Positions 24,101 through 64,000 of a stretch of 64,000 bases of DNA are shown piece after piece. The notes beneath the pieces were generated by a model that searched no databases, had not been told where the DNA came from, and worked only from the letters and a program-made list of their open reading frames with translations. The position numbers and the translations under genes were made by a program. Origin of the DNA: Dryococelus australis. Taxonomy: Eukaryota > Arthropoda > Insecta > Phasmatodea > Phasmatidae. The stretch spans positions 301,607,466-301,671,465 of the forward strand of contig CM057009.1 of assembly GCA_029891345.1 (NCBI GenBank), in the 5' to 3' direction. The first letter of the stretch is position 1; each line of letters begins with the position of its first letter.

Positions 24101-25149
24101 TTGATATCATGGGAATGGTAATTATTTCATGTTTTGGTTTTAGTATATTTTCAAACAATATATTTTCATATATCATTGCATGTAATTAGTAAATGAGTCA
24201 TTGATTGATTTGCTACTTTGTTTCACTGATAAACTTTTTAAAGTTGTGTGTTTGGCAATAATTCTTTGTTTCATTATTTATAATTATTTAATGTTTCAAG
24301 GCATAGTCATGCCCTTCAAATGCTATATTAGTGTATTTAGTTATTTTAACGCACATCACAGCCACTAAGGTGGCTGATTCCCCTCCCCCCTCACACAGAA
24401 TCCCAGCAACCAACTTCATTTCAAACTCAGCCTCCACTCAAGAAGGATCTACTCCTCTTTCCCTCACCCACCCACTGAGCTCAGTACAGTCTGACTTCGC
24501 AGATGATGGACCTAATTTACTTTTATGCCCTCCTCATATATGCTGCTGCTGACACCCATCACAGCTCATCACCTGCCAGATGTCCAAGGGTGAAGACCTA
24601 TGGTGGTGCTCTTGATGTTAACCCTTAGGCCACTCTTGTCCCAAATGACACTTATGTCACTCTTGCACCAAGGACAACACACACACATATATATATACTG
24701 CTGCCCCCCTTTTCTCAGAGCTCAGTCGACTTTAAGATGTCCAATGGTGAACATCTAACCATTTCGATTTTAAAAACTAAAAAAAAAAGAAAAATACAAT
24801 TAAAGGATTATCCCTTTTTACACTTATCCCTTTATCTTGGATCATCTGCAATTAACCCTTTACCTGTAATTAACCCAGGTAAATAAATCCAGGTGCGATT
24901 ACACAGGTGCGAAAAACCATTTACTGTTTCAAGACGTACATGCTCACCCTACTGGTGCCATGTGGCTCATTGTCATGCCCATTATACATACTGGTATGCA
25001 ATGTGATTGCCACAGTTCAGAATAAGTGCCACGATCATGCACTGTGTTACTTATTGCCTTATCGTGTAAATAAATCACTTTATATACAATTCACAAAAAG
25101 TTTGGAATATTGTGAGATAAGGCAGTTTGTGTGGTAGGAGTTATGTAGT
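21116..25149. other. AT-rich DNA, no gene seen
   Basis: About 4 kb with only short open frames (the longest 84 codons) and no domain motif. It holds a GA-rich microsatellite at about 23329-23347 and a CA/TA patch near 24680. If the polymerase and the capsid genes belong to one Polinton, this would be its decayed middle, but nothing here shows it. Confidence 0.45.
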
Positions 25150-25418
25150 GGTTTTGTGATCAACAGAGAGTGCACTATCGCATTGAACATGCCTGGGACA
25201 AGCTGAAAACAGCTGGTTTTGATCGTCCACGACCTCCAGAAACACTTCCAGATCTCATAAGTACTGCCCAGATGGAATTGGACATTCGTCCAGAAGATGA
25301 CATGAACACATTGATTACAAGCATGCCAGGGCGTGTTACGGACCATGGGACCTGTACAATGCACATGGAGGACATACATGGTACTAAGATGCAGTGGGAT
25401 GAAAGAAACCCTCCGTAG
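25150..25418 (+). pseudogene. Tc1/mariner transposase C-terminal fragment
   Basis: IEHAWDKLK, then PPETLPDL, then a run ending NTLITSMPGRV matches the C-terminal end of Tc1-like transposases, where HxWD, PxxxxEL and LIxSMPxR are conserved and the last catalytic acid sits in the first block. The frame is 82 codons long and no earlier part of a transposase was found upstream, so it is a short scrap. Confidence 0.55.
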
Positions 25419-25972
25419 TTAGCGACACCATTAGGTTAATTTTGTTATTCTCTCATGTTTATTTGTCTGTGATATTGGACAAATTTTTGTTTGTTAAAAA
25501 AACTTTGAATTTCACGTTTTGTACCGGTACTGTTGGTAACTAATAAATGTTAAGCTTTCTTTTATGTGTATTCCATACTTTTTTGTACTCTGTATGTATA
25601 TTCCAACCTTTTTGTGAGGTGTTTATATATTTTTGTTTACACTGTCGTCTCCTTTCCCGCAATGTTTCCACATTTCCATTGGCAATTTCCTTACACTTCA
25701 CCGATTTAGCATCACTCTGCTTACAATAACTTATATATATTAATATACATATATGGGGCTGATTAATTAAATTGTGATTTCAAGCAGCCATGTTTGTCTT
25801 TGTTCGTTGCCAGACATTACTGCATCCATACCCCATGTTGTGTCACCTTAAAATGTACATGTTGCACACTTTCAACTATGCATAGTTCATTTCCTGTGTT
25901 GGGTCATTTTTGGGAGATAAACAATAGTTGCCACGAATCCTGAATCAGCCCTCATGTGTGTATATACATATA
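25419..25972. other. No gene seen
   Basis: AT-rich sequence with no recognised motif. Confidence 0.5.
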
Positions 25973-26283
25973 TATAGTCCATTCTCCATTGGAAGAGATT
26001 TTCTTGGAGCCCTGCTAAATGTCTACTTGCAGGCATATTTCATATCCTTCTGCCAAATGTAAACAAACATTGCCATGTGACTGCCATGTAGCATCTGCCA
26101 AAACCAATGTTTTCATTCCATTGGATGTTTGTGTGCACATGTGATCGTATACTTTTGCTACACCTTAATATAAACATTGAAATATGACTTCTACTTTTAT
26201 ACCTGTCAAATGTGTTGTTGTAATTAACAGCAATTTATGCAGTATATTTCCCTGCATTGAAGTTAGATGGAGAATGGCAAATA
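25973..26283. mobile_element. MITE copy F
   Basis: The left end TATAGTCCATTCTCCATTGGA is mirrored by AGTTAGATGGAGAATGGCAAA at the right. About 240 bases of the body (GGAGCCCTGCTAAATGTCTAC, CCAAATGTAAACAAACATTGC, ACTTCTACTTTTATACCTGTC) match the left part of the larger element at 56221-58043. No protein is encoded. Confidence 0.8.
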
Positions 26284-26323
26284 AGTCTAATCGAATTCGT
26301 TACTTGCAACAGCTAACCAAACA

Positions 26324-26554
26324 TTGATATGCACAATCAATCATTTGTGGTTAACAATGGCAAAAACCTACATCATTGTGACACTGATAGGTTCTTATGA
26401 GTCGGATGACTTAGAAACATTCATTAAAACTGCATTGCCTAAAGAAGTGCATTTGCAATTACATGGAAATCCAAATACATTACCTAGTGTGATGTATATT
26501 AAGATTGATATCGATATCTCGGAAGACAACTCAAATGCAAATATGTTGAAATAA
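26324..26554 (+). CDS. Unrecognised 76-codon open frame, doubtful
   Basis: An open frame directly right of MITE F. Residues 12-75 read like a compact protein (MAKTYIIVTLIGSYESDD, then SVMYIKIDIDIS), with alternating hydrophobic residues and no low complexity. I do not recognise the family. It is short and overlapped by a 62-codon frame on the other strand, so it may be chance. Confidence 0.2.
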   Translation: MICTINHLWLTMAKTYIIVTLIGSYESDDLETFIKTALPKEVHLQLHGNPNTLPSVMYIKIDIDISEDNSNANMLK

Positions 26555-26699
26555 GCAGTTGTTACACACCTCTTTCTGCACATTATTTAAGGGAATAACC
26601 TTTAAGTCTAATGGAGTGCAACAAGAACTAATTTTCGTTTTTTAACACATTTTTCCCTGATTTGATGATGTTTGTTCAATTTGGAGCTTCTAAGCTCAA

Positions 26700-27150
26700 T
26701 GCCAGAGGCAACACTGGAGGCAGCACTGTAGACACTCTCGATGCCGGAGCCGGCACTCCAATTCCTCTCGATGTTGAAGACAGCATTGTAGACACTCTCG
26801 GGTCCGGAGGCGGCATCAGAGTCGCACTCCAATTCATCTCGATGTTGAATACTATGTTGTAGATACTCTCGGCACCAGAGGCTGTGCTCCAATTCCTCTT
26901 GTTGTAGAAAACAGTGTTGTAGACACTATCAGCGCAGGAAGCGGCGCTCTACTTCCTCTCGATGTTGAAGACAGCATTGTAGACACTATCAGCACCAGAG
27001 GCAGCACTCTACTTCCTCTGGATGTTGAAGGTGGAGGTGTAGATATTCTCGATGCTGTAATTGCCAGAGGCAGCGCTCCAATTCCTCTCAAAGTTGAAGG
27101 TGGGTGGTGTAGCTATTCTCGATGCTGTAGTCGATGGTGGCGATGCTGTA
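26700..27150. repeat. 60-bp tandem repeat, about six copies, open on both strands
   Basis: GATGTTGAAGACAGCATTGTA with CTCCAATTCCTCTC recurs at about 26770, 26841, 26901, 26961, 27021 and 27091, mostly 60 bases apart. Sixty bases is 20 codons. The plus strand is open over most of the array with a repeat such as PLDVEDSIVDTI, and the minus strand has SVYNAVFNIERNWSAASGA with a few stops. A smaller related array lies at 62200-62340 in the opposite orientation. A repetitive structural protein is possible; strand and function are unresolved. Confidence 0.7.
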
Positions 27151-29779
27151 GACAATCTCGATGCTGGAGGTAATTGAGATACCCCTAAGGAGGGCATTGA
27201 CATTAGCAATGGTTGTAGTGTAGGACCATTTCCATCGTCATTGTCCAAAGAATTTGTCGAAATTTTAATTAAAGGATCTGAACCATTCACTATCTCATTA
27301 AATTAGTCCCACTTAAAATTTTCAAGTTCGATATCAAAGTCTTGGTTCGATGAAACAAGCAACTAATCTTCGTAGGAAGCGACATCGCAATGCGAACCAC
27401 ACAGGATAACTACCAGAAACAATGGAAGGGGGCTACATGCTAAACCCCTATTTATAAAAATGTTTATATTCTCAGGTAAATGGTCAAGAAACGACATTTC
27501 TCCCATCCAACCCGAAGATCAGAAAGGCAAACACCCCCTTCCATTCCCTCACCCTTGACTTTCAAATAACTTCACCACATCATCCCAACCTCTGAGACAA
27601 ACCTCTATACTAAGTTTCGTCCTCAAATAAATGAAAACCTATCGATTTCATTTAAATAAATAAATAATTTATGTTTCAATACAAATAAAGATATTACAAA
27701 ATTAATTCTGGATGATTATTGACAATAATATTAAAACTATACATACAATAAAGGCATATGATTTGTATTGTGCAGATTTACTGGACTTAGTATAATCTGT
27801 TAAAAAAATCGTTATCGGTACACGATAATCCTACTTTTAACTTTTTCTATGATTAGTTTTACCTGTTAAAAATAATGTTAATAAATTGATTTATATATTC
27901 TTTTGAAGCTTTGGATGTAATATCTGTTTAATAACCTGGGCTATTACATTATGTATTACTAAAACCTTACCGAATATTTCTATAAACCATAAGAATAAAT
28001 TTTTCTCTACCCCTGAACTTATTGAATTCAACAGTAATTTTTGCAAAGTATTTTAAGCAAATTAGGTTCCCTTTTTCTTATACTGTATATTCTCATTATT
28101 ATTTGGGATATACATGTACATATAACTTCCATTAATTTACTCATTCATTATTTACTATGATTAAAATTATATTTTATAGGACAATTTTTTAAAGCTTTGT
28201 GTGTGAGTGAAATAAAGCTTGTTTCCTAAATTATTATTTGATATAAGTCTTGACTGTTTCGAAATAGTATAAAAGTTTGTTGTTTTAATTTCTGTATATT
28301 TTCTATTGTAATAGAGGTTGGGAAGTGAATATTAATTTTATTAAGTAGAAAAATATATATTGTTTGCGAGTTTACATTCAGGTAAGAAGGCATTTTCGAC
28401 TTGGTAGGTTCAATGGTTAAATAGTTGACCTGGATACTAGCAGGGATGCGGAAGGCTTTGACTGTCTGTTTCATGAGAATCTAGGCACCTGGGTTGTCTC
28501 CAGGGTATAATAAAAGCAAAGTGCTTTCTGTGAGGTTTGTTGGACTCAGGAATGCACCCTCTGTGATCTCGGTTTTTGGTTGGTAACATTGAAAAGATGT
28601 TGAATTTAAAAATGTTTATATTTTGTAACTCTGCTCAAAGGTTGGTAGCACTGATAGACCTGTATAGCTCTAAATGCGATGGTTTTTAAACATCTGGAGA
28701 CATTTACAATTCTATACGTCTAGCAATTCGAAGCCATTTACTTAGGTTAAAACATCTGTAACATTGAACATATCTTACCTTTCAACAACATAACTTAGGT
28801 ACATTTTATTAAACAAGGATAATCTTTTTTTCTTAGGAAAACCAGTTCACTTTTAAGAAAGAATTTTATAAATAAAAGTAAAAATTCATTTTTAAGACAT
28901 ATTTATTAATAAAAATATATAAAAATACACTTTATTTCACAAAGTTATGTACATTTTTGATGGCACAGGATGATACAAAATGTTAAAAAAAAAATTTTTC
29001 TGTAACAAAGTCGAAATGGTTTACTGCAATGTGTTAATAATTTGCTGATATTTAATTTACACTTAGATTTCTGTATGCACGAAAAGGTGATTTCGTTGTC
29101 TTCTTGATCCATCATTAAGAAATATTGGATTACACACAATATAATACTTTTTAATCTAAATTTAACTCATTAGTTCACAATGTTCTCTCATCCCAAATAG
29201 TGCCATATCACTCATATAATATCCATGGGTTATTCAGGAGAAGAATCATCATAATCTGTTTCACCCCAGTCAGACATGATTGCATAAGATAGCATTAATT
29301 TAGTGTTTTCCTCTGCAGACAAGAATGTTGAATTAGATTGGTGTGTTTTACATAATTGTTTTAACTATGGGCAATCATACTATTTTTGAATACCTCTTTC
29401 TTTCCCATTACACATATGTTCTAAAATGTGTTTTGCTCGACTCCACCTACATATATTTCCCAATTATTTAGGCATTGTTTGCAAATATCTTCAATATTCT
29501 CATACTCCATACATCCACACTCCCATTTTAAACCATGGTGATGGTTGTTACCCTTCTAATAGCTTCGTGTGTTTGGGAGTTATGTATTTCCAGTTGAATG
29601 GTACTTGAAGTTAAAAATATTTGTATTATCTTCCATCAGTAATAGCTCATTTTTATTGGAAAATTTATCTGATGATTGAAATCCTTGTACATTGCAAAAC
29701 ATCTCGCCATAGCTGTGCTTCGTCGCCTACTGAATCAATTCATTATTTTCACCAGCTTATCTCTGACATTGAAACTCTC
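27151..29779. other. AT-rich DNA between repeat array and capsid gene, no firm gene
   Basis: Several minus-strand frames of 60-80 codons occur. One near 28226-28474 contains KAFRIPASIQVNYLTIEPTK and one near 29225-29275 starts MSDWGETDYDDSSPE, but I recognise neither. In Polintons other virion genes often follow the capsid gene, so decayed remnants may be here. Confidence 0.4.
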
Positions 29780-30960
29780 TTATCTATTGTGAATTATCAA
29801 AGCAAACACTTGCATATTTTCTGGAATGGGTATATTTGCATTTATTTCAATTTGTGAATCAATTATGGTATTGGTGATTGTGGCATCTTGTTTGCTTACA
29901 TCAAATACAAATAACATTCTTCTACTTTTAAAAGTTTTGGGATCTAGTATTGGTGAACTCATTTTGTTATAATATGATTGTTGAAACTATGTATACATGT
30001 CATAGCATATAAGCAATTCCCCATTATCATAATTTGTATTAAAACCAACATAGGGATAAGCTTGGCTGTTTAGATATAGATTAATATTTTTTGTATCACA
30101 ATTACCAAATAATGTTCGATCTGCTTTTAAATTGTTTTGCTGGTTTGTTTGAAAATATATGACACAAATCACGGTTTCTCAGATGAAATCTTGATTTCAC
30201 ATGCCATACTACTTTTTGTGTAGTTGGTAGAGTTATAAAAGACACCAGAGCCCATGATCTGTATGCAATGTCTAAATTCTTCCCTTTTTCGATATATTTT
30301 AAAACTTTACACAATTGTGTGTGTTAATTTCAATATGTGGCAATAGCCATTCGACACTGTTTAATTCAAATCCTACACCTTCCTAGATATTAGCTGTGTA
30401 ATATATGGCATTAAAATGCATGTTAGCAAATAGAATAATTAAATCTTGTTTAGCATTAAAATAACATGTTTGTGGTCTTCAGCAATGCCCAATAACCTAC
30501 TTATTGGCATAACAACTTCGAAATTTCTGCCTGGATTTATTTTTTGTTAATAATTGCTAACATTGCTCCACCCAGCCATCATACATGTATAAATACTGTT
30601 TACAGTTTGCAAAAGATAGTTTTTTATTGTGGAAGTAATTCCAACATATCTTGGCTGATTGATTTCCACTCCACTTAGCAAATACGGAATTCTATCGATA
30701 AAATGAAGTATTTTGTTTCTTACTATTTTTGTAGTAACTGGATTGCTTGCATCGACTGTTTATTAAATTGTTTCTCTAAACCTTAAATTTTATTTCGTTG
30801 GTAATGTGTAAATATCGTTATTTTGTATGGAAATCTTTATTTCCAATGGAAATGAATACGGACCAATTCGGAATGGTTTATTCACATGTATTTCAGTATT
30901 TGTGATTGCATCTTAATATCTGATCGGTTCTTCAGCATTAATTATGTCTTCCATTTCGTT
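29780..30960 (-). pseudogene. Polinton/adintovirus major capsid protein relic
   Basis: Polintons and adintoviruses encode a double jelly-roll major capsid protein. Reading the minus strand from 30960, blocks in the order expected of this family are: FPLEIKISIQNNDIYTLPT; IPYLLSGVEINQPRYVGITS; FEVVMPISRLLGIAEDHKH; YRSWALVSFITLPTTQKVVW; QTNQQNNLKADRTLFGNCDT followed by NLYLNSQAYPYVGF; and MLFVFDVSKQD with ENMQVFALIIHNR at the end. These lie in different frames with many stops, so the gene is dead. Length (about 390 codons) is shorter than the usual 550-700, so parts have been deleted. A penton-like remnant lies just upstream on the same strand, the usual neighbour. Identification rests on remembered family patterns; a profile search would settle it. 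Confidence 0.85.
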
Positions 30961-31056
30961 TAACCATGTATCCTAGTTCTTTTAAAAATAAATTGTTGCC
31001 TCTTGTTAACTTCACACGTAACTTATTTGAAGTGAAACTTATTTATATGTCTCAAT

Positions 31057-31440
31057 TTATGTCTTTATATTCTTCATTCTTCGGAATACGTTTGTTAGTG
31101 AGATATTTCTTAAAAGAATGGCATACTTTATGTCTGTATTAGGTGTTATACACAAAATCCATTTTGAATGTAATGCACATGGAATGAACTGATTATATAG
31201 CTTTTTTAAATGTAAAGAGATGGTAATTTCTTCAATTCTAAAATGAATAAGTTTACCATCATGATCGACAATTCTAACAACTATTTCATCAACACAATTC
31301 ACTATTTCTGGAAGATATATCAATGTATTCGGTATTTCAATTATTTTATATGCTGGAGCCACCACACATGTGAATTCATTAAGTGTATTTGTCAGTTTCT
31401 CATTAAATATGAAGAGCCTACGATATTATAATTTATACTA
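31057..31440 (-). pseudogene. Penton-like minor capsid protein, C-terminal part
   Basis: The minus strand reads VVAPAYKIIEIPNTLIYLPE, then VVRIVDHDGKLIHFRIEEIT and SLHLKK. The IVDxxGxxxxFRxEEITxxLHL pattern is the C-terminal end of the Polinton/adintovirus minor capsid (penton, single jelly-roll). After LHLKK about 50 further codons carry no conserved pattern. The N-terminal two thirds are missing: the BRO block begins immediately upstream, at about 31500. Position next to the major capsid gene supports the call. Confidence 0.7.
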
Positions 31441-31502
31441 CATACATTTACCAACAATATATTAACCTGTTTAGATGATTTGTGTAATTAATTAGTAGGA
31501 TA

Positions 31503-31902
31503 TACTCTCCAAAGTGACGCCGGACATTGAGGAGCTCAACAAAAACTCGTATGACGATGCGCTCAAAGACTTGTTTACCAGAATTCAGCCCGACATTGAG
31601 CCAACAAAATGGTATTTTAATGACCACTCACTGTGCCTAGACAGGTTTATAAAAATAATACTGCTGGGCATGTACGACATGGTCGGGGCGTTATGACAAC
31701 CGGCACCGATGGAGATCACGCACGTAACATTATAGCGATTTTGTGTAGCATGTCGTACACGCCAGGCCAATCGCAAACAACACTCGAGCAATTACGTGCG
31801 AGACAGTACGACTCGATGTGCGGATATTTACAAATCCAAGACAAGGGTATGATCACGCAGGTGTTGAGAAAAATGGCGCCCACTTCTGAAATGTTCAAGT
31901 AG
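31503..31902 (+). pseudogene. Unidentified virus-like coding sequence, C-terminal part
   Basis: Two plus-strand frames follow one another. The first runs from about 31503 (TPDIEELNKNSYDDALKD, then PTKWYFNDHSLCLDRF) to a stop near 31696. The second begins within the overlap and runs to TAG at 31900 (GTDGDHARNIIAILCSMSY, LQIQDKGMITQVLRKMAP). Codon use and composition are unlike the AT-rich flanks and like the BRO genes beside it, so it probably came with them. One frameshift near 31690 breaks it. I do not recognise the family. It converges on BRO copy A, with a hairpin between. Confidence 0.5.
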
Positions 31903-31903
31903 G

Positions 31904-31929
31904 TATTTAGACGCCACGGCGTCTAAATA
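31904..31929. terminator. Perfect 12-bp hairpin between convergent genes
   Basis: TATTTAGACGCC, two bases, then its exact complement. It starts two bases after the stop of the plus-strand frame and lies 28 bases before the stop of BRO copy A on the other strand. Such a hairpin could serve 3' end formation of convergent viral transcripts; that role is inferred. Confidence 0.5.
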
Positions 31930-31956
31930 ACAAACAATGTCGATGCCTTGACTACG

Positions 31957-32588
31957 TCATGCCAATTCCTCGCCGTATTTGCGAATGGATGGTAGCACAT
32001 TTTCGTACACCCAGTTCCTGAATTTTTCAGCAGCTGCCATCTTTGGTTTCATGATCAATGCATACAAGTCTGGTTCATTGATGAATACGGTGTGTGGATG
32101 TGTGGTCAGCAAGGGTCGCGATTCGTGACCCTCTATATAAGCGTGATTGCTTATATAACAAGAGAAGCGAATCGCTCCTCTCTATATCAGCATAGGATTG
32201 CCCATTCAAAGGGGGGAGCGAATCGTTCACCCCTTAGTTCAGCATAGAATTGTCCATTCAAAGGAGGGGAGTGAATCGCTCCTCCCTATATCAGCATAGG
32301 ATTGCTTATTCAAAGGGAGGAGCGATTCGTGACCCTTTATATCCAATATGATTGTCTATTCAAAGGGGGTGGCGATTCGCTCCTCACTATATCAGAGTAT
32401 GATTGCCTATTCAAAGGGGGTCGCGATTCGCGACCCCCTATATCTGCGCATGATTGCCTATACTTTTCTCTGACACATTCTCTGATTGCTTCTCGCGGAT
32501 TTGTGTATTCCAAAATCACCGTAACATCTTTTGTTTTGAATCACCGTTTGCCTTCTCCATCCATTATCCCATACACATTTAAATTCAT
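31957..32588 (-). pseudogene. BRO family gene, copy A (BRO-N domain with repeat insertion)
   Basis: BRO proteins are DNA-binding proteins of baculoviruses, ascoviruses, entomopoxviruses and relatives. The frame starts at 32588 (MNLNVYGIMDGEGKR), meets a stop, continues with FKTKDVTVILEYTNPREAI, then enters a tandem repeat (32108-32465). It resumes with HPHTVFINEPDLYALIM and FRNWVYENVLPSIRKYGE, and stops at 31957. Both ends are halves of one BRO-N domain, and the frame at the two repeat edges is the same (ESRP). The C-terminal domain of copies B and C is missing: the protein stops four residues after the BRO-N domain. Its ATG overlaps the stop of copy B (ATGA at 32585-32588). Two or more stops in the repeat make it non-functional now. 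Confidence 0.85.
32108..32465. repeat. 51-bp tandem repeat with palindromic core inside BRO copy A
   Basis: Seven copies of a GCGATTCG or GCGAATCG-type core are at 32118, 32167, 32218, 32271, 32322, 32372 and 32423, so the spacing is 49-53 and mostly 51 bases (17 codons). In most units the core is the centre of an imperfect palindrome, the best being GGGGGTCGCGATTCGCGACC at 32416-32435. Between cores is CTATATCAGCATAGGATTGC then CTATTCAAAGG. On the gene strand one unit reads NRQSCADIGGRESRPPL. The design recalls palindrome-bearing homologous regions of insect DNA viruses, which act as origins and enhancers; that comparison is by form only. Confidence 0.9.
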
Positions 32589-33304
32589 GCACGACTCGCG
32601 AACGATTTTATGCGTATGATATCAGCGATGAGGTCATCACAACGCATCGTCGTACTGAAGCAGTTACCTATCGATGTGATGGGCCACTGCTCTTTCATGA
32701 GGTTGTACAGCATTATGGGATTGATGTTGTCGAGAGACAGTAGCACTTGCATCTCGGGGTACTCTTGCCTAATCGCATCGAGTCGTACACTCACCAGTCG
32801 CTTTTGACATCCGATGGCATAGTAATCATTTCCACCGAGTGAAATGAACACAAACTGGTAATGCTTACCAATATCGCCAGTAGGCGGCAGCGCATGCTTG
32901 TCAATGATACTACTTTGTGCAGCGAGGATTGTGTTCGCAGCATCCAGTAGCGGTTTTACTTTTTCTCGATTTTGCACTCGCCGTATTTGCGTATGGATGG
33001 TAGCACTTCTTTTGTCACCCACTGTTTGAAATATATGGCCACGGGTAGTCTAGATGAGAATATCAGTTCATACAACCCGGGCTCTGAAATAAAAACCGTT
33101 TGAGGATGTGCATTCCTAAAAGGGGTCCCTCGAGGGACCCCTTTTATTTGTGACAATGGCTTCTTATACTTTCCCGTTACATTCACTCGCAATGTTTTTT
33201 CAGATTGGTATATACCACAACGTCTTTAACCTAAACCACGAATTGCCTTCTTCGTCGATGATCACGTATACTGTCTTACAGTCATAGACTAGTTTATCGT
33301 TCAT
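32585..33304 (-). pseudogene. BRO family gene, copy B (most complete)
   Basis: From the ATG at 33304 the frame reads MNDKLVYDCKTVYVIIDEEG and NSWFRLKTLWYI, the first part of a BRO-N domain. After a frameshift near 33200 comes TLRVNVTGKYKKPLSQIK, then HPQTVFISEPGLYELIF and FKQWVTKEVLPSIRKYGE, the second part. After another small shift near 33000 the C-terminal domain follows: DAANTILAAQSSIIDKH, LPPTGDIGKHYQFVFISLG, YPEMQVLLSLDNINPIMLYN, and it ends IIRIKSFASRA at 32585. N plus C domain together are the usual BRO layout. The linker in the BRO-N domain contains a perfect 28-bp palindrome. The stop overlaps the start codon of copy A. A start upstream of 33304 is possible since the frame stays open to about 33350. 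Confidence 0.88.
33118..33145. repeat. Perfect 28-bp palindrome inside BRO copy B
   Basis: Centred on CTCGAG with GGGGTCCCTCGAGGGACCCC as the inner 20 bases and four A/T pairs outside. It encodes part of the BRO-N linker (KGVPRGTPF). It sits at the place where copy A carries its repeat array. Confidence 0.95.
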
Positions 33305-33419
33305 GATATTGACGAGCGATTGCACTTTGTTAGACTCGCACAGGCTTACACATGATACTCGAACAATTTATGGCATGCTTTGCTTGTGATATTTCAAGAC
33401 GTGATGTCATCTCGAAACA

Positions 33420-33910
33420 CTACTGGAGCGGACTTTGCAAACTGTCTGTCTCGAACGATTTTATGTGTACGATATCAGCGATGAGGTCATCGCAACACAT
33501 TGTCATGCTGAAGCAGTTACCTGTCGACATGATGTGCAACTGCTCTTTCATGAGGTTGTACAGCATTATGGGATTGACATTATCGAGTGACAGTAGTACT
33601 TGCATCTCGGGGTACTCTTGCCTAAGACACATTTGACATCTGATGGCAAAGTATTGGTTTCCATCGAAACTGATAAGCACAAACTGGTGATGCTTAATGA
33701 TATCGCCAGTAGGCGGCAGCACGTGCTTTTCAATGATACTATTTTGTGCAGCGAGGATTGTGTTTGCAGCATCCAGTTGCGGTTTGTACTTTTGCTCGAT
33801 CTTATACTCACCGTGCTTGCGAATGGACGTAGCACTTTTTCGTACACCCAATCCTGGAATTTTTCAGTAGCTGCCATATTTGATTCCATGATCAACGTGC
33901 CCATACACAC
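33420..33910 (-). pseudogene. BRO family gene, copy C (N-terminally truncated)
   Basis: It begins inside the BRO-N domain: TLIMESNMAATEKFQDWVYE at about 33905. A small deletion shifts the frame near 33830. The C-terminal domain follows from 33815: YKPQLDAANTILAAQNS, KHVLPPTGDIIKHHQFVLIS, YPEMQVLLSLDNVNPIMLYN, IADIVHIKSF, ending at 33420 with a short tail (ETDSLQSPLQ) unlike copy B. It is very close to copy B in DNA, so the array arose by recent tandem duplication within the virus or after insertion. The first half of its BRO-N domain is absent; unrelated plus-strand coding sequence abuts the break at about 33900. Confidence 0.85.
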
Positions 33911-34190
33911 CAACTTTTTCGAGAATCAAAGCACCGACTATGTAAAAGTTGATAACGGCGATTGGACGTCAGTGTGGAACTAATTCCAAAATGGTTAATG
34001 TGTAAATGATGTTGATGCTTTTGGCGATGGCCTATTCCATACACATCGCCAATTATCTCCACAATGTAGCTCTAGTGCATAATGTATTGTGTGGTCCATC
34101 ATTTTTGCAATCGTTCAGTTTGGACGAATTAAACGTCTGGACCCAGATGGACGAATCTTTTTCGCCATCGCACGGCGCAGTAACATGATG
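33895..34190 (+). pseudogene. Unidentified virus-like coding pieces
   Basis: The plus strand carries the end of a frame, NFFENQSTDYVKVDNGDW, stopping at 33983, then a 60-codon frame from 34006 to 34188 (MAYSIHIANYLHNVALVHN). On the minus strand a basic stretch, AMAKKIRPSGSRRLIRPN, is also open. Composition matches the BRO genes rather than the flanks. No family is recognised and neither strand can be preferred firmly. Confidence 0.3.
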
Positions 34191-34322
34191 CTCGTACAGT
34201 ACATTTTGTAGCACATTGCGAAGTCAGAGCGATAATTGTGTTTTAATGATTGGATAACCATTAAAACTTTATTGAGATATGGGCACAAATAAAAATAAAC
34301 TGTTGTCTAATACGACGATAAT
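34191..34322. other. Right edge of the viral block
   Basis: The sequence turns AT-rich again over about 100 bases. Two inverted words, GTTTTAATG and CATTAAAAC (34229-34268), flank GATTGGATAAC. Confidence 0.4.
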
Positions 34323-34617
34323 TTACTCTTTAATAAAACGAAATAGAATGCCTTTGTTTATCCCCCAATCCACCATTCCATCATATGCAAAATTTATACC
34401 TCCACGATTAACACCATCTAAAACTTTTTCATTGAAAATCTGAAGATATCTGTCTGGCAAGGTTACTTTAAAATTCCCAGAAGTAATTACCACTTTGTAT
34501 CCATACCATGTATCATTTATTTCAGCATGGTCTATGGGATAGGTCTGTCCAATTCTAAGTTCGGAAAGTTTCTTAAATTGTTGGATTCCATTCAATATAT
34601 TTAGCAACTGATCCATC
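34323..34617 (-). CDS. Intact 97-codon frame, mobile-element type small protein
   Basis: Starting at MDQLLNILNGIQQFKKLSEL (34617) it continues with LRIGQTYPIDHAEIN, YGYKVVITSGNFKVTLPDRY, and ends at a stop at 34323 with no break. A pattern of short leader, LxxGxxYPI, and VxLPxRY is one I associate with small proteins in arthropod Polintons and similar elements; function is not known to me. The frame stays open upstream to 34793 through a minisatellite, which would add a Lys/Thr/Cys-rich repeat, so the inner ATG is the better start. It lies on the same strand as the capsid genes, on the far side of the BRO block. It is the only open, unbroken candidate gene in this region. Confidence 0.45.
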
Positions 34618-34675
34618 TTTATTATGGACAATATTTTATTTTTTATGTATTCAAATTTCTTGAGCCACTCTTTGC

Positions 34676-35130
34676 AACTTTTTGTAGTCACTTTTTGCAA
34701 CTGCACTCTAATGCAACTTTTTGTTGTCACTTTTTTGCAGATGCACCCAAATGCAACTTTTGCAGTCACTTTTTGCAGATGCCCCAAATGCAACTTTTTG
34801 TAGTCACTTTTTGTGGTTGCACTCTAACGCAACTTTTTGCAGTCACTTTTTGCGGTTGCGCTCGAATCGGCAGCTGATGTTTTCCTGATGGCTCGTGCAT
34901 TCAATTTGCTGTAGGTTTTATGATGGTTGGGGGCTGCTACCAAACGCAACTTTTTGCAGTCACTTTTTGCGGCTGCAATCTAATGCAACTTTCGCAGTCA
35001 CTTTTTTTGCGGCTGCGCTCGAATCGGCAGCTAATATTTTGGATCAGGAAAACAAACGGTAATTTTTTCTGATGGTTTTCTGATGGTTTAGGCATTCAAT
35101 TTGCTGTTGGTTTTCTGATGGTTGGGGGCT
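34676..35130. repeat. Nested minisatellite
   Basis: Units of about 53 bp built on GCAACTTTTTGCAGTCACTTTTTGC recur from 34676 to about 34860. A larger unit (CTCGAATCGGCAGCTGATGTT through GATGGTTGGGGGCTGC) is then repeated, so 34860-35130 contains two diverged copies of a roughly 170-bp block including more of the small repeats. Confidence 0.85.
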
Positions 35131-36985
35131 GCGCTCGAACCAGCATTTCTATACTACTAATGCAAATGGATTTTTTTGAAGGAATCTGCATTCCGGGGCA
35201 TGCTGAAAGATTATGTTGCACTGAATCTGACAATTTCGTCGAAATATGTTTGCTCGTTCCGGTCATGTGTGAAACAAAATTTAATAAACCAACTCACAGT
35301 AGAGATGGAAAAACAAGGGCCTGTAAAATATAATTAAAGGTTGTATTGTCTGTAAACGAAACCAGAACCGAACCAGGACGAACATTGCAGAAGAGCATTC
35401 AAGAGTGTAGATGATAATATAAAAAAGGTAAGTTGAGAGGAAGAAGAAATGATAACGAAGGGTTCGGGCTGGACACTCGATTCGGTGGATCATCTGCAGT
35501 TGAGAACGAGTGCATACCAAAATCTTACGAATTAATGTGATGTCCTCTTCTTGCCTTCGAAAAAAAAAAATTGCTTAAAAATATTTGTATGTAAAATTTT
35601 GTAAATAGAAATAGAAATATATATATATATATAAATTTTTCTGTGTTTTATTTCTAAGGTACACTTATTTATAAAAATTAAAAAATTTAGTTAATATTCT
35701 TTTATGAAAAAAAAAGATTCTAAGTTCTTACGTACATGCCTAGAGTGTGGTGTTTAGGCCAAGTGGATGTTGAGTAAAGATGAGAAATTTGTCCCTATAT
35801 GAAAATAAAATACTTAAGTCTGGGATAGTCAAAGAATATTATATGTACAACTGAATATTAAAAATAATTCTGGGATAGTCATAAAATATTATATGTACGA
35901 AAATGCGAAAATAAAAAAATGTATACTTAAAATATAATTAAAAATATCTATGATGATATATTTATTAGTTTATTATAATTTCCTTAGCTCTTAAATCCAA
36001 AATGGTGGTCCTGGCTTTGGGTTACATAATTGATATGACATCACGATCATATGGGCCTTGAAAAGATGAGTCCGGTGATATATAACACTTAATACTTATG
36101 CCTTTAATTTTTTTAATTATAAAAATATATTTCAATTTAAAAAGGTAAATTTTTAGATTTCTGGGGTTAAACATCCACACCGGTCCGCTCTCCTGACCCC
36201 CCAGTCCACCTGGGTCTCAAGTCCGCTCTGCCTGCTCTGACTGAATATAGACTTTACTGGGGAGTCATTTTTCGCCAAATTAGAAAGAACTGGAAATTTT
36301 TAAGGAAAAGAGGGAAATTTTAAGTTATTTTTGGGCGAAACCGTACGATTTTGTGTGAAAATGAATGATGTTTGAAAAAAATTCCAACATGGCAGCCGGC
36401 GGCACCTTGGCTCCAGCTCCGTCTCCTGCCTCCTGTTCTATAACAAACTATGCCCTACTACTTTGGTTCAAACTGAAAGAAAGTGTTGAACAATTTATGA
36501 GGTCTTGTATTTAACGTCTTGGCAACGCCTTCAGTTATTCAAACTGGCCAAGTTATATAGATATTTGAATCAATATTCATACATTATTTTGTTAATAATG
36601 ATTTCCTCTCATTAATGTTTTTTTTCTGGAAGTATACTGATATTTTTGGTGCTATGTTATATATTATTATTGTAACCACTGTAGGGCAGTCAATCTATAG
36701 TAACATGGTAAATGCTGTTCGTGGCATATAAGGATGTTTTAATATTGATCTGAATCACGCACCATTTTTGTGTCACAATATTATTGCTGGTTAAGCAGAT
36801 TCTTCCTAAACATCATTGCAGTGTGAACTTTTCTTGTACCTGAATGTAATTCATATATGCTCTGTTTGTCAATCAAATACTTTGAAGTGACTTCTTGAAT
36901 CATAGTTTGTACAATACTGTGCAATAATAAAAATAAAGATTTGATGCAATCCCTATTCATTTATAATGTTTTGTACCGGAATGCT
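35131..36985. other. No gene seen
   Basis: AT-rich. It contains a two-copy direct repeat of TCTGGGATAGTC with ATATTATATGTAC (35820-35900) and a 36290-36400 patch of AGGGAAATTTTAAG-like words similar to the repeats at 46.3-46.7 kb. Confidence 0.45.
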
Positions 36986-37260
36986 CATACCTATAAAAAG
37001 ACAGCGAAAACATCCGGTCGAACCATTCTCACTGACACAAAAACATGGTTTAGAAAGAATGGCATAGCAAATCGTGAGACGTCCAAATTTCCTGCGGTTC
37101 GAAATTGATTTCCTGGGGCATGTTGTAAATACGGCGGGGAGATGGATAAACCCGGAACCAGTACAGGCAGTTGTTGATCTCGTGGCATCACGGAACCACG
37201 AACAATTACAGAAATATTTGGCATCATAGGAAGCCATGACAACTGGCTCGTAACATGTCA
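36986..37260 (+). pseudogene. Ty3/gypsy reverse transcriptase fragment
   Basis: The plus strand reads RFEIDFLGHVVNTAGRWINP then EPVQAVVDL and NHEQLQKYLAS. FLGHVV followed by a Gly and Asn-Pro, then a short helix and LxxYL, is the end of the gypsy reverse transcriptase domain and start of the RNase H junction. Only about 80 codons are left, with a stop before and after. Longer open frames on the opposite strand are shadows. Confidence 0.65.
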
Positions 37261-38099
37261 CGGTCACTTTCGATGAGCTATTGTTTAATGAACTCATTGA
37301 AATGGTTCTTGTTGCTGCTCTTATGTATTATTATTATTAGTCTTGAAGGCTTTCACCTGCATTTATCTTTCTAGGGTGTTATCGGCGATACCACGTAAGG
37401 AAATGTGATAGAACTTTTGTGGGATACAGAGTGTACCTACGCTAAAAACAGTATCAGACATATGTTTAAAAGCATACCCAAGAGCAGTGCATGCTTATCT
37501 CCTGATACAAAATACTCTTGCCACTATCCTTTGGGAAGAAAGCTTCCAAAATTACACCTTTACTGGCACTATCCAAATTAATAATATACCATTGCTTCAC
37601 TGAAAAATAAAAACTATTTCCTTAATTTTTCGAAGAAATCCTGGGAAAACTTATCAAGAGTTGTCCGTAACTCTCGGTAAAATTACGGAAACCGTTTTTT
37701 TTTTTTTTTTTTTTCTTCCAAAAACGGACTATCCTTAAATTTTACCAAAGCGAATTTACGGAACCTTTGCGTGAATTTTCTATTTAGTTTTCTGTACTTC
37801 TAGTTTAAAATAGAAAGATATATAAGAAAAAGTATTTAATTATCGCTATGTGTATGTTCTACTGCGTATAAAAACATACCAAGATAGATGAAATATTTTA
37901 TACTAGAACAAGAATTAAATCCGAGTCAAATGATTGAAAGCGCACGACTCTAGCCCCCCGCTAACGATGCTTGTAGTATAACTTTGATATTTTTAATGGA
38001 GTAACGTAAGTAACTTTGTCAGTTTCTATTCATATTAGTGTATTGTAAGTGTTGCAAAATGCCACAGATGCCTGATACTATTTTTTGAAGTATAGTTCA
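37261..38099. other. No gene seen
   Basis: AT-rich with a T-run at about 37696-37715. Words such as ACGGAAACC and CCGTAA around 37660-37770 resemble those in and near R1 copies, so part of this may be one larger element with R1 copy 3. Confidence 0.4.
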
Positions 38100-38335
38100 T
38101 AGCAGCGTGGATAACCTTAACTGCCGCAGAAACGATAATGTTCTGGTTACAGCGGCGAAGAAATCTTGTGTTCACTCGACATTGTTCGTCTCCGAAACAC
38201 GAAGCTATAGGAAACACGGAGACTTCCCGTATTCGCTATTTACGGACTTAACTCCGTTTTTCGTCGTTACCGATTGCGTTTCCGTATATTTATTGTACAT
38301 TTCCGTAAAAATTTCCGGAAAAATAAGGGAATTCT
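38100..38335 (+). repeat. Dispersed repeat family R1, copy 3
   Basis: Matches copies 1 and 2 in order: CTGGTTACAGCGGCGAAGAA, GTGTTCACTCGACATTGTTCG, GAAGCTATAGGAAACACGGAGA, TTTCCGTAAAAATTTCC. It is the longest of the three copies. Confidence 0.6.
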
Positions 38336-38389
38336 TAACAGTGTATAAATTTCACCAATTCGTGTTACTGTGCTTGGTTTATTAGTGTG

Positions 38390-39410
38390 TCTGTTTCAAT
38401 CAGTCAAACGTATCTGACTGATTCAACAGTCACGTCTGTGAATTTAACTGATGAATCAGTGAAAAAATTCCAGATTTATTTCACTTATTGATTCAGTGAC
38501 ATTTTCCACTGATTCAACAGTGATTTTTTTTTTCACTGTTTACTCAGTGGTTTATTTTCGACTGATGTATCAGTTAAACAGTGTGTTAAAATAGCTGTTA
38601 AAAAAGTTTAAGAATTGCAGTTCAATAATGCGTATCAAGTGAATAAAACAACAACGAATAAACTAATAAAACCAATACAAAATACTATCTAAAATTTGTT
38701 TTGTATTTTTAAACGCCATTTTATGAGGTAATAGGAACGCGCAGCCTTTCATTACGTTTTTAAGTGTTTCATTTCGTTTTCATTTAATCGTCACTGCGCT
38801 CTGTTTGAAGGTTTAAACTGCATATAATGTGATGAACAGAGTGCACTCATATATTAAATTTGTTTTAACATTCCTAACGGTACAAAAAAAAAAAAAAAAA
38901 AAAAAAAAACGAAAAGTAAGAGCATACAATTTAAATCTTCATGATTTCGAAGCGAAAATATGCGACAAATGTTTTCCACCCAATAATTCTTTTATGAAAA
39001 AAAAGATTCTAATTACCATATCTAAGTAAGATATGGTAAGGTAACGGCCTAAAGTCGAAAGGTTTGTTAATTCAATCCCGGCCGCCGCTAATAATTTTTT
39101 ATACTTTTTTTTTTAATTACGGTAATTTGAGAAATACAAAAAGGAAACTATCGTAAATGTGTTTATTTAATGTAATTATTCGACTGAATTCTATAAAAAA
39201 CAATATTTAAATCGCCACTGTGGTCGGCCATCACTTATTCAGTCAGTGTAATAATTTCACGTAACTGATTCAATCAGTGCAATTTTGTCACTCAAGCGAT
39301 CAGGGGTTTTCCACTCGGTCTAAGTGGAGCCATTTTCACCGATTCGAGTAGTTGAATTTCAGTGCGACTCAGTGGTTTCCTCCTACTGGTTCGAATTTAG
39401 AGTGTCAGGA
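38390..39410. mobile_element. Possible non-autonomous element with ACTGA-rich inverted subterminal repeats
   Basis: The left flank (38395-38590) is packed with CACTGATTCAACAGTGA-like words in both orientations, and the right flank (39235-39375) with CAGTCAGTGTAA, ACTGATTCAATCAGTG and similar. The interior has a 27-bp poly-A run (38883-38909) and a tRNA-like AATTCAATCCCGG word near 39070. Clustered subterminal repeats at both ends suggest a hAT-like or similar MITE; exact ends are not resolved. Confidence 0.4.
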
Positions 39411-39565
39411 AAAATGTAGTATAACATTTTACCTTGAGTCTGCGACAAATGCTTTATTAGTTAGATTGAACATCTAAATGCGAGCACAAGTAGCAAAATA
39501 CCCTAATTAAAAAAAAAATTGCGGGGAACTCACAACCGGATATTTTAGATTTTGTTAGGATTATT

Positions 39566-39819
39566 GGGGCCGCGGTGGCCGAGCGGTTAGCGTGCTCGCC
39601 TCCCACCATGGCGAACAAGGTATAAATCCCCGGCCGGGTTACCGGATTTTCGCATGTGGGAGTCGTGCTGGACGATGTCGTTGGTCGGCGGGTCTTCTCG
39701 GGGAACTCCCGTTTCCCCCGCCCTTTCATTCTGGCGGTGCTCCATTCTCACCTCAATAACCCTCATCCGCTCTCAAGACCTCGCTGTCACGAGCCGCCCA
39801 AATATCTTCACTCACTCAC
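39566..39819 (+). mobile_element. tRNA-derived SINE, full-length copy 2
   Basis: It starts GGGGCCGCGGTGGCCGAGCG, where TGGCCGAGCGGTTAG is a near-perfect tRNA-Leu/Ser A-box. The tRNA-unrelated body (CGGATTTTCGCATGTGGGAGTC, CCCGTTTCCCCCGCCC, CTCTCAAGACCTCGCTGTCA) and CTCACTCAC end follow. This is the copy with the best-kept A-box. Confidence 0.88.
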
Positions 39820-39889
39820 GCTTAAGATGATCGAGGAATCGAATGGAAGGATCTCCGCAAGGTTCCAAATTTTCATTCGGAATGTCTAG

Positions 39890-41360
39890 CGACATGTGAG
39901 AAAAATACACTTCACACGGGTTCTGAAGGGAGCGGCTGGCAATGGAGTGGCCACAGACGTGAAACTCTACTCTACCCGCGGGGCGACTGCAACAGATGTT
40001 GCCCCTCAGTAGTGCTGGGAAGAAGGTTCTTCGTGGGCAAGGTCTGTAAAAAGATGAGGTTGGCTCAAGAATGTGTTACTCGGGCGGCGGCCCTCGTGGC
40101 GGACAGTCGGGAACCCGGGTAGCTCAGTTGCTGATGGCTTCCCGCATCCGCTGGGGGCGGCCCAACGACCAAGGCGGAGGATGTTGGGGGTAACCCGGGG
40201 TGCTGAAACATGCGAAGTGTGGCGAACCACTCCACTGCTGGATTCTGCGGGCTGTCAACTGTAGGTGCGTGCGGAATGGAATGGAACAGCATCGGATTGG
40301 ACGCAATTGCGTCAGCCTTCACTCGTGGGCCAGCGGATTCGCCTCCACAACTGGTAGCTCCTGGATGTCTCGCCGAGCGCTGCTCACCTGTGACCGAGGG
40401 AGATTTCGTTGGAGGGGGAGGGGGTGGCTACCCGACGCATTTCTCCCCACCTTCACCCGCAGGGTGGAGCTCCTAATGTCGGCGCAGAAGAGCGAAGATG
40501 GAGTAGGTGCCATGATCGAGCTGCCAGGATTTCTTGCGCCCACGACTGGAAGCTGAAGGACCCTGCCTGATGTCACTGCTGTCGATGTTGCTGTGCGGGT
40601 AGTCAGGCTGCCCGCGCAGGACCATGGATGACAGTTCCACCTCAAGGGAGCATGTGCCTTTAACATGCTCGTCCAAAGCCCCGCCACCTGTCTACTACAT
40701 TCTTCGCTCCAATATTAAACAGCATGGACTCCACACCTGCATCTCCTTTAGCATTTCCAGTAGTGCTCCAACGAGTTTAACTCATTTTCTGTCGGTTAGG
40801 GTTTTACCGTGTCTATGCGGGTTTTACCACACCCCTTCTTAATGTGGCTTTAACTACACTACACTTAGGGAGGTAGCCATGGCCCCAAATTGATGGCCAT
40901 GCCTACCCATTCCCTCTCGGCCACGATGCCCGCCTCCTTTGTATTCGATTCCCTCTCCTTTAAGCGAAAGGGGCTCAGCCCTGAGATGCAATTAGAACCC
41001 GAACCTACCTTCGGACTTACACTTGAGGCTCGGTCTTAGTCGCCAGATATTGGAGTTGTAGCCATGGGGTCTCGGAGGGGTGGAAAAGCGAGCAGTCTTT
41101 ACAGAACATTCCTTTTCCCCTCCCAAGGCTAGCCATGGGGGTTCGTACCCTCCCTCTCCACTTCGTGAAGTCGTGAAACCGGTATTTGTGGACTGTTCCC
41201 CTCCCTTTTCAGCCCTGCGATGATGACACCCGGAACTCTACTGTCCTCACTCAGGCCACAGGGATGCAACATCCGTCGGGCAGGCCGTACCTCGCATTTC
41301 AGACACCTATTCGCCTCACGCGGACATTATCGGTTACGCCGAAATCAGTCAGATAGTTCC
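39890..41360. other. GC-rich block without a credible gene
   Basis: About 1.5 kb of GC-rich sequence in which many frames on both strands are open by composition; none shows a family motif. Repeated short words (TAGCCATGG at 40872, 41061 and 41132; CCCTCTC; TTTTACC) suggest untranslated or transposon-derived sequence. Probably a GC-rich retroelement remnant, unproven. Confidence 0.35.
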
Positions 41361-62345: not shown

Positions 62346-62724
62346 AATGCCTAAGAAACACCATTCAGTTTGCTAACATGATTGAACCTGATAAAAACTT
62401 TCACGAATTTTAAGACTTGTTTTACAATTCTAAAGACTTGTTTATGATCCAAAGACCCATAATTCAATTTGTTAAACAGTTTACGATTATAAAACTTGTT
62501 TTACAATACTTATATGCCCTATTTATAGCCAAAACATGAAAACATAAATGTCTGCAATTGATTGTATTTGGTTATTGTTCTGTTTTGTAATTGTATTTTA
62601 ATTGCGTATTTTAAAAAAAAACTACTTATTTCAATTGGAGGACATAAATCGCCAAAACTCTCATAATACAATCATTGATTTATGTTTTAATTAATGCAAC
62701 CCAATGAATTCCTTCATTTTGTTT
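62346..62724. other. AT-rich spacer
   Basis: No gene recognised between the repeat array and the pX-like gene. Confidence 0.5.
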
Positions 62725-63050
62725 CTAATTTAAATTATCAATCATACATTCACGAATATTTGGTTTCTTTGGTAAATCGTCTCTCATATAGGGAATATCC
62801 AGTTTCTTTACAAATACATTAATATCTTTGTTTGGTAATGCACATTTTGGAAGATTATTTAAGACTTTCTGCATCTTTTCCCACGTTTGGAGTTTTTTCG
62901 TCATTGTCCAACTGTATGGTTTCAAATACATTCCTTTGCCTTTTGATTTAACTGCTCTACTAATTGCCGAAGCCCCTCCGAGGATTGATCCAAGAGCTGT
63001 TAATTCTGGAAATAGGAATAGAATGATTCCTCCTTTCTTTGCTTTCGTTT
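62725..63050 (-). pseudogene. Polinton pX-like membrane/basic protein
   Basis: The minus strand carries GGIILFLFPELTALGSILGG and ASAISRAVKSKGKG, then MYLKPYS, and closes with IPYMRDDLPKKPNIRECMID and NLN at 62725. A Gly-rich hydrophobic segment followed by KGKGxYLKPY is the hallmark of a small virion protein of Polintons/adintoviruses likened to adenovirus pX/pVI. LPKKPxxxECxIxNL is its usual C-terminal end. It is joined to the PLA2-like frame by a frameshift at about 63040, so both may have been one polyprotein or two adjacent genes. Confidence 0.78.
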
Positions 63051-63438: not shown

Positions 63439-63450
63439 TATATATAGGCC
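63435..63450. promoter_or_regulatory. Palindromic TATA element between divergent genes
   Basis: GGCCTATATATAGGCC is a perfect 16-bp palindrome. It lies about 60 bases upstream of the PLA2-like reading frame and about 130 upstream of the ATPase reading frame, which are divergent. Its use as a shared promoter is inference. Confidence 0.45.
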
Positions 63451-63991: not shown

Positions 63992-64000
63992 TTGTATCAA

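What the first reader, a model, noticed from the sequence alone, without database searches (positions are those of the whole stretch)
29780..34617. BRO-gene block embedded between Polinton capsid genes and another element-type gene
Seen: decayed major capsid and penton C-terminus (minus strand) end at about 31440; immediately afterwards a GC-richer block (31503-34190) holds three BRO copies and unidentified coding pieces; at 34323 an AT-rich, intact mobile-element-type frame resumes on the same strand. Known: BRO genes belong to large DNA viruses of insects and some phages; Polintons carry capsid genes. Inference: either a Polinton-like element captured a viral BRO cluster, or a separate insect virus integrated into a dead Polinton and removed the N-terminal part of penton. 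A BRO-bearing adintovirus-like element would be unusual and I know of no close example.
Basis: partly seen in the sequence, partly recalled or inferred. Interest (0 to 1): 0.8.

Follow-up and report, generated by a model that had tools for sequence, protein, structure and literature searches.

The report
BRO-carrying Polinton virus-transposon fragment
The block is a broken copy of a virus-like jumping gene (a Polinton) that multiplied in this large genome while carrying BRO genes, and a short form of it also carries membrane and oxidase genes resembling those of much larger DNA viruses.

Summary
Window 31509-35158 is a left-truncated copy of a multicopy Polinton family whose gene set includes BRO. 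In 18 of 20 BRO loci fetched from the same genome (the 20 best matches after the window) BRO sits beside a protein-primed DNA polymerase; in 17 it lies between that polymerase and a double-jelly-roll capsid gene. One 14.5 kb copy and one 5.4 kb copy have terminal inverted repeats, AGTAGTAT ends and identical 6-bp flanks. The '34.3 kb gene' lies inside the terminal repeat. The window piece belongs to the short form ('type B'), where I found no polymerase, integrase or capsid. It carries BRO, an iridovirus VP88-like protein (E 3e-9), in three loci an Erv1 sulfhydryl oxidase, and a ribonucleotide-reductase stub. The neighbouring capsid gene belongs to another multicopy Polinton family; 10-11 kb of each of two of its copies gave no BRO hit. 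The join at 31509 was seen only in the window. BRO in Polinton-like viruses is known from a protist; I found no report for animals in the library searched.

The parts
31509..35158 (.). Left-truncated copy of the short form ('type B') of a BRO-carrying Polinton; right terminus intact
   Evidence: blastn to 20 fetched BRO loci: L017 and L026 hold the stretch in pieces from 31509 to the right end; no listed alignment goes beyond 35164. Junction query, 41 rows: 28 match only from 31509 or further right, 12 only up to 31509-31511, 1 (the window) both
31508..31896 (+). C-terminal part of a 208-aa unknown gene (g208), frameshifted near 31690
   Evidence: tblastn with L026:3920-4543, 79-83% identity in two pieces; no homologue in the protein search or the PDB
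31969..32576 (-). BRO unit 1: Bro-N pieces at 32576-32439 and 32112-31969 separated by the 51-bp array
   Evidence: tblastn with L020:4441-5301, E 1e-6 and 1e-12
32166..32461 (.). Tandem array, 51-bp unit, about 5.8 copies
   Evidence: Tandem Repeats Finder; similar stretches in L009, L014, L019, L020
32585..33325 (-). BRO unit 2: Bro-N plus DUF3627, frame-broken
   Evidence: Pfam Bro-N 4.6e-14, DUF3627 9.4e-5; tblastn E 2e-68
33420..33913 (-). BRO unit 3: end of Bro-N plus DUF3627
   Evidence: Pfam Bro-N 0.002, DUF3627 0.0018, both below Pfam cut-off; tblastn 72% identity, E 3e-61
33879..33999 (+). C-terminal stub of a ribonucleotide reductase small subunit
   Evidence: tblastn with L032:4613-4999; that protein hits Ribonuc_red_sm E 1e-6, below the Pfam cut-off, and PDB 9dws E 3e-8
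34323..34616 (-). 97-aa gene inside the terminal inverted repeat (TIRg), open here, function unknown
   Evidence: Present at both ends of copies L036/L038 and L033/L039; no Pfam hit above cut-off; no homologue; fold pLDDT 47, unusable
34666..35016 (.). 39-bp tandem repeats within the terminal inverted repeat
   Evidence: Tandem Repeats Finder, two rows 34666-34867 and 34932-35016
35142..35158 (+). Right terminus ...TTTCTATACTACT; the next six bases (35159-35164) are one side of the presumed target duplication
   Evidence: Terminus motif search; 2 of 2 copies checked at both ends have identical 6-bp flanks
26546..31509 (-). Neighbouring Polinton family 'P1' (capsid, penton-like C-terminus); a different family
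   Evidence: Collinear with P1 copies L034/L030 and L035/L029; 29740-31460 has 39 other scored copies at 77-84% among 4136 candidates
26238..26547 (+). P1 piece with a weak match to the first part of the penton-like gene, inverted relative to P1 copies
   Evidence: L029 and L030 continue after 31509 with the reverse complement of 26547-26238; penton-like match E 0.002

Best explanation
The block is the right-hand 3.65 kb of a short member of a BRO-carrying Polinton (adintovirus-like) family that multiplied in this genome. SHOWN: the long form is about 14.5 kb in the copy seen end to end, with gene order TIR gene, penton-like gene, packaging-ATPase-like gene, adenain-like protease, PLA2-like protein, rve integrase, double-jelly-roll capsid, BRO cluster, protein-primed PolB, ribonucleotide reductase small subunit, TIR gene. 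The short form (5.4 kb in the one copy seen end to end) shares the terminal repeats and, in most copies read, the BRO cluster. No polymerase, integrase or capsid was found in it. It carries a VP88-like protein, a further frame with a C-terminal hydrophobic stretch, g208 and in some copies Erv1. INFERRED: the long form copied itself by protein-primed replication and inserted by its integrase (6-bp target duplications). The short form, keeping the terminal repeats, was copied and inserted, and perhaps packaged, by long-form proteins. BRO would be a DNA-binding regulator of the viral stage, by analogy with BRO proteins elsewhere. In the window the element has lost its left half and is joined at 31509 to a point inside the penton-like gene of another Polinton through later rearrangement.
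For: BRO DNA has 40 scored copies at 83-100%, the window included (782 candidates). I fetched the 20 best places after the window: 18 hold PolB, 17 capsid, 17 PLA2, 13 integrase; in all 17 with capsid, BRO lies between capsid and PolB. Pfam on 127 open frames of these loci: Bro-N 15, DJR 12, PolB 10, DUF3627 10, PLA2 6, rve 1. Terminal repeats and identical 6-bp flanks in both copies tested at both ends (GACAAT, 14,473 bp; AACGTG, 5,433 bp). Short-form genes: VP88-like E 3e-9 over residues 1-182, Erv1_Alr E 7e-7. In another short-form copy (L042) the terminus motif lies left of the Erv1/VP88/g208 cassette. The window's right end has the same CTATACTACT terminus.
Against: The window copy's left end is gone, so its own target duplication cannot be tested. 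Integrase was not found in 5 of the 18 long-form loci, and many frames are broken, so mobility is inferred from structure. PolB matches were below Pfam cut-off in the frames scanned singly. The protease match is weak, E 0.013, so is the ATPase, E 0.003, and the penton-like gene has no family hit. The 20 loci are the nearest to the window, so more distant BRO copies may differ. That long-form proteins moved the short form is untested.
Confidence: 0.88

Rival explanations
1. A separate large insect DNA virus (nudivirus, ascovirus, iridovirus, entomopoxvirus) integrated a BRO cluster into a dead Polinton.
For: BRO with DUF3627, Erv1, a VP88-like protein and a ribonucleotide reductase are genes of large DNA viruses (matches); the join with the P1 Polinton was seen only in the window.
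Against: BRO sits beside Polinton genes in 18 of 20 loci, and one unit holding VP88-like, g208 and BRO genes is bounded by the same termini with a 6-bp duplication. No long large-virus stretch was noticed in the loci read, though the direct genome searches for it did not run.
Confidence: 0.04
2. BRO is cargo of the neighbouring P1 Polinton whose capsid lies at 29.2-31.4 kb.
For: Adjacency in the window.
Against: 10-11 kb of each of two P1 copies hold no BRO hit (L029, L030, L034, L035). They continue after 31509 with other sequence that both share. None of 40 other listed matches to the junction query spans it (40 of 1557 candidates scored).
Confidence: 0.03
3. The short form is only an internal-deletion derivative (MITE-like), and its Erv1/VP88/g208 genes are passengers from a lost larger parent.
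For: PolB is missing between BRO and the reductase stub; alignments to the two sides overlap by a few bases around 33887-33895. The VP88 match is truncated in L026, L033 and L043, and PLA2-repeat and reductase fragments lie at the left end in L042. Differences in VP88 and g208 are not concentrated at third codon positions.
Against: The cassette was found in none of 18 long-form loci (each about 10 kb of a 14.5 kb element) nor in the one long copy covered end to end, so it is not simply what a deletion of the long form leaves. The TM139 frame does show a third-position excess (0.124, 0.075, 0.151). Erv1 and an L1/VP88-type protein form a coherent pair (recalled from poxviruses).
Confidence: 0.55
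4. Assembly join at 31509 or 35158.
For: The 31509 join was seen only in the window; no reads are at hand.
Against: 35158 is the recurrent terminus of the family, so that edge is biological. A false join at 31509 would not change what the block is.
Confidence: 0.05

Closest known systems
Maverick/Polinton elements and adintoviruses (Eupolintoviridae)
   Same: DJR capsid, rve integrase, protein-primed PolB, PLA2-like protein, weakly matched protease and ATPase, terminal repeats, 6-bp target duplications, about 14.5 kb. Drosophila-associated adintovirus 1 is 14.5 kb with PolB and integrase (PMC8363768, passages read; the whole word BRO does not occur there).
   Different: Carries a BRO cluster, a ribonucleotide reductase small subunit, a gene inside the terminal repeat, and a short companion form with large-virus-type genes.
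Oxyrrhis marina polinton-like virus OmPLV
   Same: A polinton-like virus with a Bro-N domain, in many copies in a host genome (PMC12721341, passages and half of the reference list read).
   Different: Protist host; Bro-N fused to VRR-NUC; tyrosine recombinase instead of rve integrase. Here BRO is Bro-N plus DUF3627.
BRO genes of ascoviruses, iridoviruses, entomopoxviruses, baculoviruses
   Same: Bro-N, DUF3627, multiple units.
   Different: Embedded in a Polinton. The list of virus families is recalled; one review table groups PF02498 and PF12299 in one cluster of large-virus genes (PMC8715426, one passage).
Iridovirus VP88 (PDB 8hif) and viral Erv1 oxidases (PDB 3gwl)
   Same: A short-form frame aligns with VP88 residues 1-182 including the MGAA-S start; the best PDB match of the Erv1 frame is 3gwl, E 9e-5. 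The virus names, grouper iridovirus and African swine fever virus, are recalled.
   Different: Encoded by a short Polinton-ended unit, not a large virus.

Membership tests
Polinton/Maverick (adintovirus-like), long form | Protein-primed PolB | tested here: met
   10 of 127 open frames hit PF03175, best 9e-12; homologous frames in 18 of 20 BRO loci; frames scanned singly were below cut-off
Polinton/Maverick (adintovirus-like), long form | rve integrase | tested here: met
   L022:7687-8118 rve E 2e-12; homologous frames in 13 of 20 loci
Polinton/Maverick (adintovirus-like), long form | Double-jelly-roll major capsid | tested here: met
   L009:6070-7347 DJR-like_dom E 1e-19; homologous frames in 17 of 20 loci
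Polinton/Maverick (adintovirus-like), long form | Adenain-type protease and A32-type ATPase | tested here: inconclusive
   Peptidase_C5 E 0.013, Pox_A32 E 0.003, both below Pfam cut-off
Polinton/Maverick (adintovirus-like), long form | Penton (minor capsid) gene | tested here: inconclusive
   A gene at the left end is labelled penton by position and recall; no Pfam family
Polinton/Maverick (adintovirus-like), long form | Terminal inverted repeats and 6-bp target duplication | tested here: met
   One long copy: repeats 88% identical, GACAAT on both sides. That 6 bp is the Polinton length is recalled
Polinton, short form (type B, the window piece) | Same termini, repeats and 6-bp duplication | tested here: met
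   One copy: repeats 84.5% identical, AACGTG on both sides; the window has the right terminus only
Polinton, short form (type B, the window piece) | Own PolB, integrase, capsid | tested here: not met
   No hit in L017, L026, L031, L032, L033, L039 and L042, L043, most of them partial stretches; L033+L039 cover one copy end to end. So Polinton-derived and probably non-autonomous, not a full Polinton
BRO family | Bro-N domain | tested here: met
   Window E 4.6e-14; L020 frame E 6e-25
Large nucleocytoplasmic DNA virus integration | Large-virus capsid and replication genes nearby | not tested
   The planned genome searches for the Erv1 and VP88 genes did not complete (between), and no search for a large-virus capsid was made

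The most novel reading that the evidence does not exclude
The two forms are two segments of one divided Polinton virus. A 14.5 kb segment makes the capsid and copying machinery. A short segment with the same ends carries an L1/VP88-type membrane protein together with the Erv1 oxidase that could make its disulfides, plus BRO regulators: an entry or membrane module taken from a co-infecting nucleocytoplasmic virus that the Polinton may have parasitised.
Probability: 0.12. Interest if true: 0.88.

Novelty: new variant of a known kind. Interest (0 to 1): 0.62.

Why it matters
Polintons are proposed intermediates between transposons and large DNA viruses. A family that multiplied while carrying BRO, a ribonucleotide reductase subunit and, in a short companion form, a VP88-like membrane protein with an Erv1 oxidase shows gene traffic between large DNA viruses and an integrating element, with many decayed copies to study. 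It makes two things testable: whether animal Polintons act as hyperparasites of large viruses, and whether a Polinton can have a divided genome.

Tried and rejected
Independent virus integration and P1 cargo: rejected, see rivals. dN/dS of BRO (medians 0.46 and 0.36 in two dS bins): dropped as evidence because antisense frames of the same DNA gave 0.49 and 0.39. Codon-position counts were used instead: BRO differences rank third > first > second position in all bins (and, by another method), whereas capsid and PLA2 in the closest bin show no clear third-position excess. In one search (closest bin) VP88, g208 and the one Erv1 pair also show none; TM139, TIRg and, slightly, PolB do. Pairs are not independent, so this is suggestive only. 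Fold of the 97-aa TIR gene: pLDDT 47, not searched further. Viral contigs: no relatives of capsid or BRO. Protein search: the BRO frame found 3 proteins, each with Bro-N and PF03374; g208 and TIRg found none. L017 was tested as one palindromic element; no second terminus was found where expected. DNA left of L032 showed only a PLA2-type repeat fragment of the family. Papers: 'adintovirus'+'BRO', 'Polinton'+'baculovirus repeated' and 'Bro-N'+'Maverick' each found only the Oxyrrhis paper; 'polintovirus'+'BRO' none; 'Polinton'+'sulfhydryl oxidase' 4 papers, listing only; further listings (a guess at a cockroach host, nothing came of it). Passages without a BRO gene: PMC11071308, PMC10328495, PMC12567637; PMC12220804 showed 12 of 19 passages, none on BRO genes; PMC2836005 was looked at for Polinton termini, no 6-bp statement on Polintons seen. 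The founding adintovirus paper, a coral polintovirus paper and two polinton reviews were not held, so absence in print is weakly tested.
Full report
What is there. The window lies in an unnamed 3.4 Gb genome (G000, contig C17). The host was not established; the size and gene set suggest a large-genome animal, probably an arthropod, but that is inference. Three broken BRO units lie on the minus strand at about 31969-33913: Bro-N E 4.6e-14 and DUF3627 E 9e-5 for the best unit, and tblastn E 2e-68 with a frame from another copy. The first unit is split by an array of 51-bp repeats at 32166-32461. Right of the BRO units are a C-terminal stub of a ribonucleotide reductase small subunit (33879-33999) and a 97-aa open frame (34323-34616). 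Left of them is the C-terminal part of a 208-aa unknown gene (31508-31896).

The block is a multicopy repeat. The BRO DNA has 40 scored copies at 83-100% identity, the window included, among 782 candidates; this is a lower bound. I fetched about 10 kb around the 20 best places after the window, so the sample leans towards near relatives. In 18 of the 20, frames of a protein-primed PolB lie next to BRO; 17 have a capsid gene, 17 a PLA2-like gene and 13 an integrase. In all 17 with a capsid gene, BRO lies between capsid and PolB on the PolB strand. Pfam on the 127 open frames of at least 140 aa from these loci gave Bro-N 15, DJR-like 12, PolB 10, DUF3627 10, Endonuclease VII 9, PLA2-like 6, rve 1. 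The other two loci, L017 and L026, are the short form.

Termini. No listed blastn alignment of window 24000-40000 to the 20 loci goes beyond window 35164. The shared terminus reads ...TTTCTATACTACT and ends at window 35158. A long copy on contig C4 runs from 28269741 to 28284213 (14,473 bp), with terminal repeats 88% identical and GACAAT on both outer sides. A short copy on C15 runs from 88454606 to 88460038 (5,433 bp), with repeats 84.5% identical and AACGTG on both sides. These are the only two copies I could test at both ends; both gave identical 6-bp flanks. The 97-aa frame of window 34323-34616 is present at both ends of both copies, so it belongs to the terminal repeat and is not another element.

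The short form. It was found in seven other loci (L017, L026, L031, L032, L033, L042, L043) and in the window; 28 rows of the junction search match its g208 region. I found no PolB, integrase or capsid in the stretches read. It has a gene whose first 182 residues align with iridovirus VP88 including the MGAA-S start (E 3e-9), followed by a frame with a hydrophobic C-terminus (TM139, no PDB match below E 0.7) and by g208. L017, L032 and L042 also have an Erv1/Alr oxidase (Pfam E 7e-7 and 2e-6 for the first two). These genes were found in none of the 18 long-form loci nor in the fully covered long copy on C4. In L042 the terminus motif lies left of the Erv1/VP88/g208 cassette, so the cassette lies inside the mobile unit. 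The copies are not uniform: L031 and L032 gave no BRO protein hit, the VP88 match is truncated in L026, L033 and L043, and L042 has PLA2-repeat and reductase fragments at its left end.

The neighbour. Window 26546-31509 is collinear with another multicopy Polinton family, P1. It holds a capsid piece (E 7e-7) and the C-terminus of a penton-like gene (E 5e-9 to the BRO Polintons' gene; the name penton is a label by position). The pieces fetched of two P1 copies, L029/L035 (11 kb) and L030/L034 (10 kb), gave no BRO hit. In them the sequence after 31509 is the reverse complement of window 26547-26238, followed by sequence like window 62508-63995. A weak match to the first part of the penton-like gene (E 0.002) lies at 26324-26554 in the opposite orientation. 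So a P1 copy seems to have been cut inside that gene and partly inverted, and one cut end now meets the BRO element at 31509. Of 41 rows for a query across that join, only the window spans it; 40 of 1557 candidates were scored. The order of events is not resolved; my planned test of the 26546 join did not complete (last try).

Decay and constraint. In the closest bin, capsid differences are 0.099, 0.097 and 0.097 at codon positions 1, 2 and 3, as expected if copies drifted after insertion. BRO differences are 0.225, 0.163 and 0.289 in the 15-30% bin; a second method gave the same order. This suggests that BRO units diversified under protein constraint before insertion. The short form gives a mixed picture: no third-position excess in VP88 and g208, an excess in TM139. 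Pairs are not independent, and a dN/dS control failed to discriminate, so I give this little weight.

How it most likely worked. The long form replicated with its own protein-primed polymerase, integrated with its integrase and probably formed virions (capsid, penton-like, ATPase-like, protease-like and PLA2-like genes). BRO most likely acted as a DNA-binding regulator in the viral stage. The short form has the ends but, as far as read, not the machinery, so the long form most likely moved it. These steps are inference from gene content.

Novelty. The library searches found BRO in polinton-like viruses only in the dinoflagellate Oxyrrhis (PMC12721341, passages read). Its introduction also states that Bro-N occurs in some polintons, citing a polinton review that is not held and a review of large DNA viruses in which the one passage I saw does not concern polintons. 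The Drosophila adintovirus paper does not use the word BRO. A paper on hyperparasitic viruses of entomopoxviruses was seen only as a title in a reference list and is not held; it may bear on the hyperparasite idea. I therefore call this a new variant of a known kind.

Noticed in passing
window 17320-19323 (+): A decayed protein-primed PolB, 26-57% identical in pieces to the BRO Polinton's PolB region: apparently a further Polinton family in the same window.
   Followed up: partly
window 62479-63982: Protease, PLA2-like and ATPase-like pieces within sequence like the P1 Polinton; may be the other half of the P1 copy broken at 31509.
   Followed up: partly
L017 (C17:164813000-164822999) and C1:295100190-295100976: Short-form copies in inverted pairs; in L017 the two arms share about 2.9 kb at 89% around a centre holding Erv1.
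   Followed up: partly
L025 4865-7250: Five separate open BRO frames in one element, the most in the list of BRO frames.
   Followed up: no
L009, L013, L015, L016, L023: An Endonuclease VII-like domain in the long form; in L009, L016 and L023 it stands in the same frame directly before the PolB match.
   Followed up: no
window 26721-27030: 60-bp tandem repeat inside the P1 Polinton, possibly coding.
   Followed up: no
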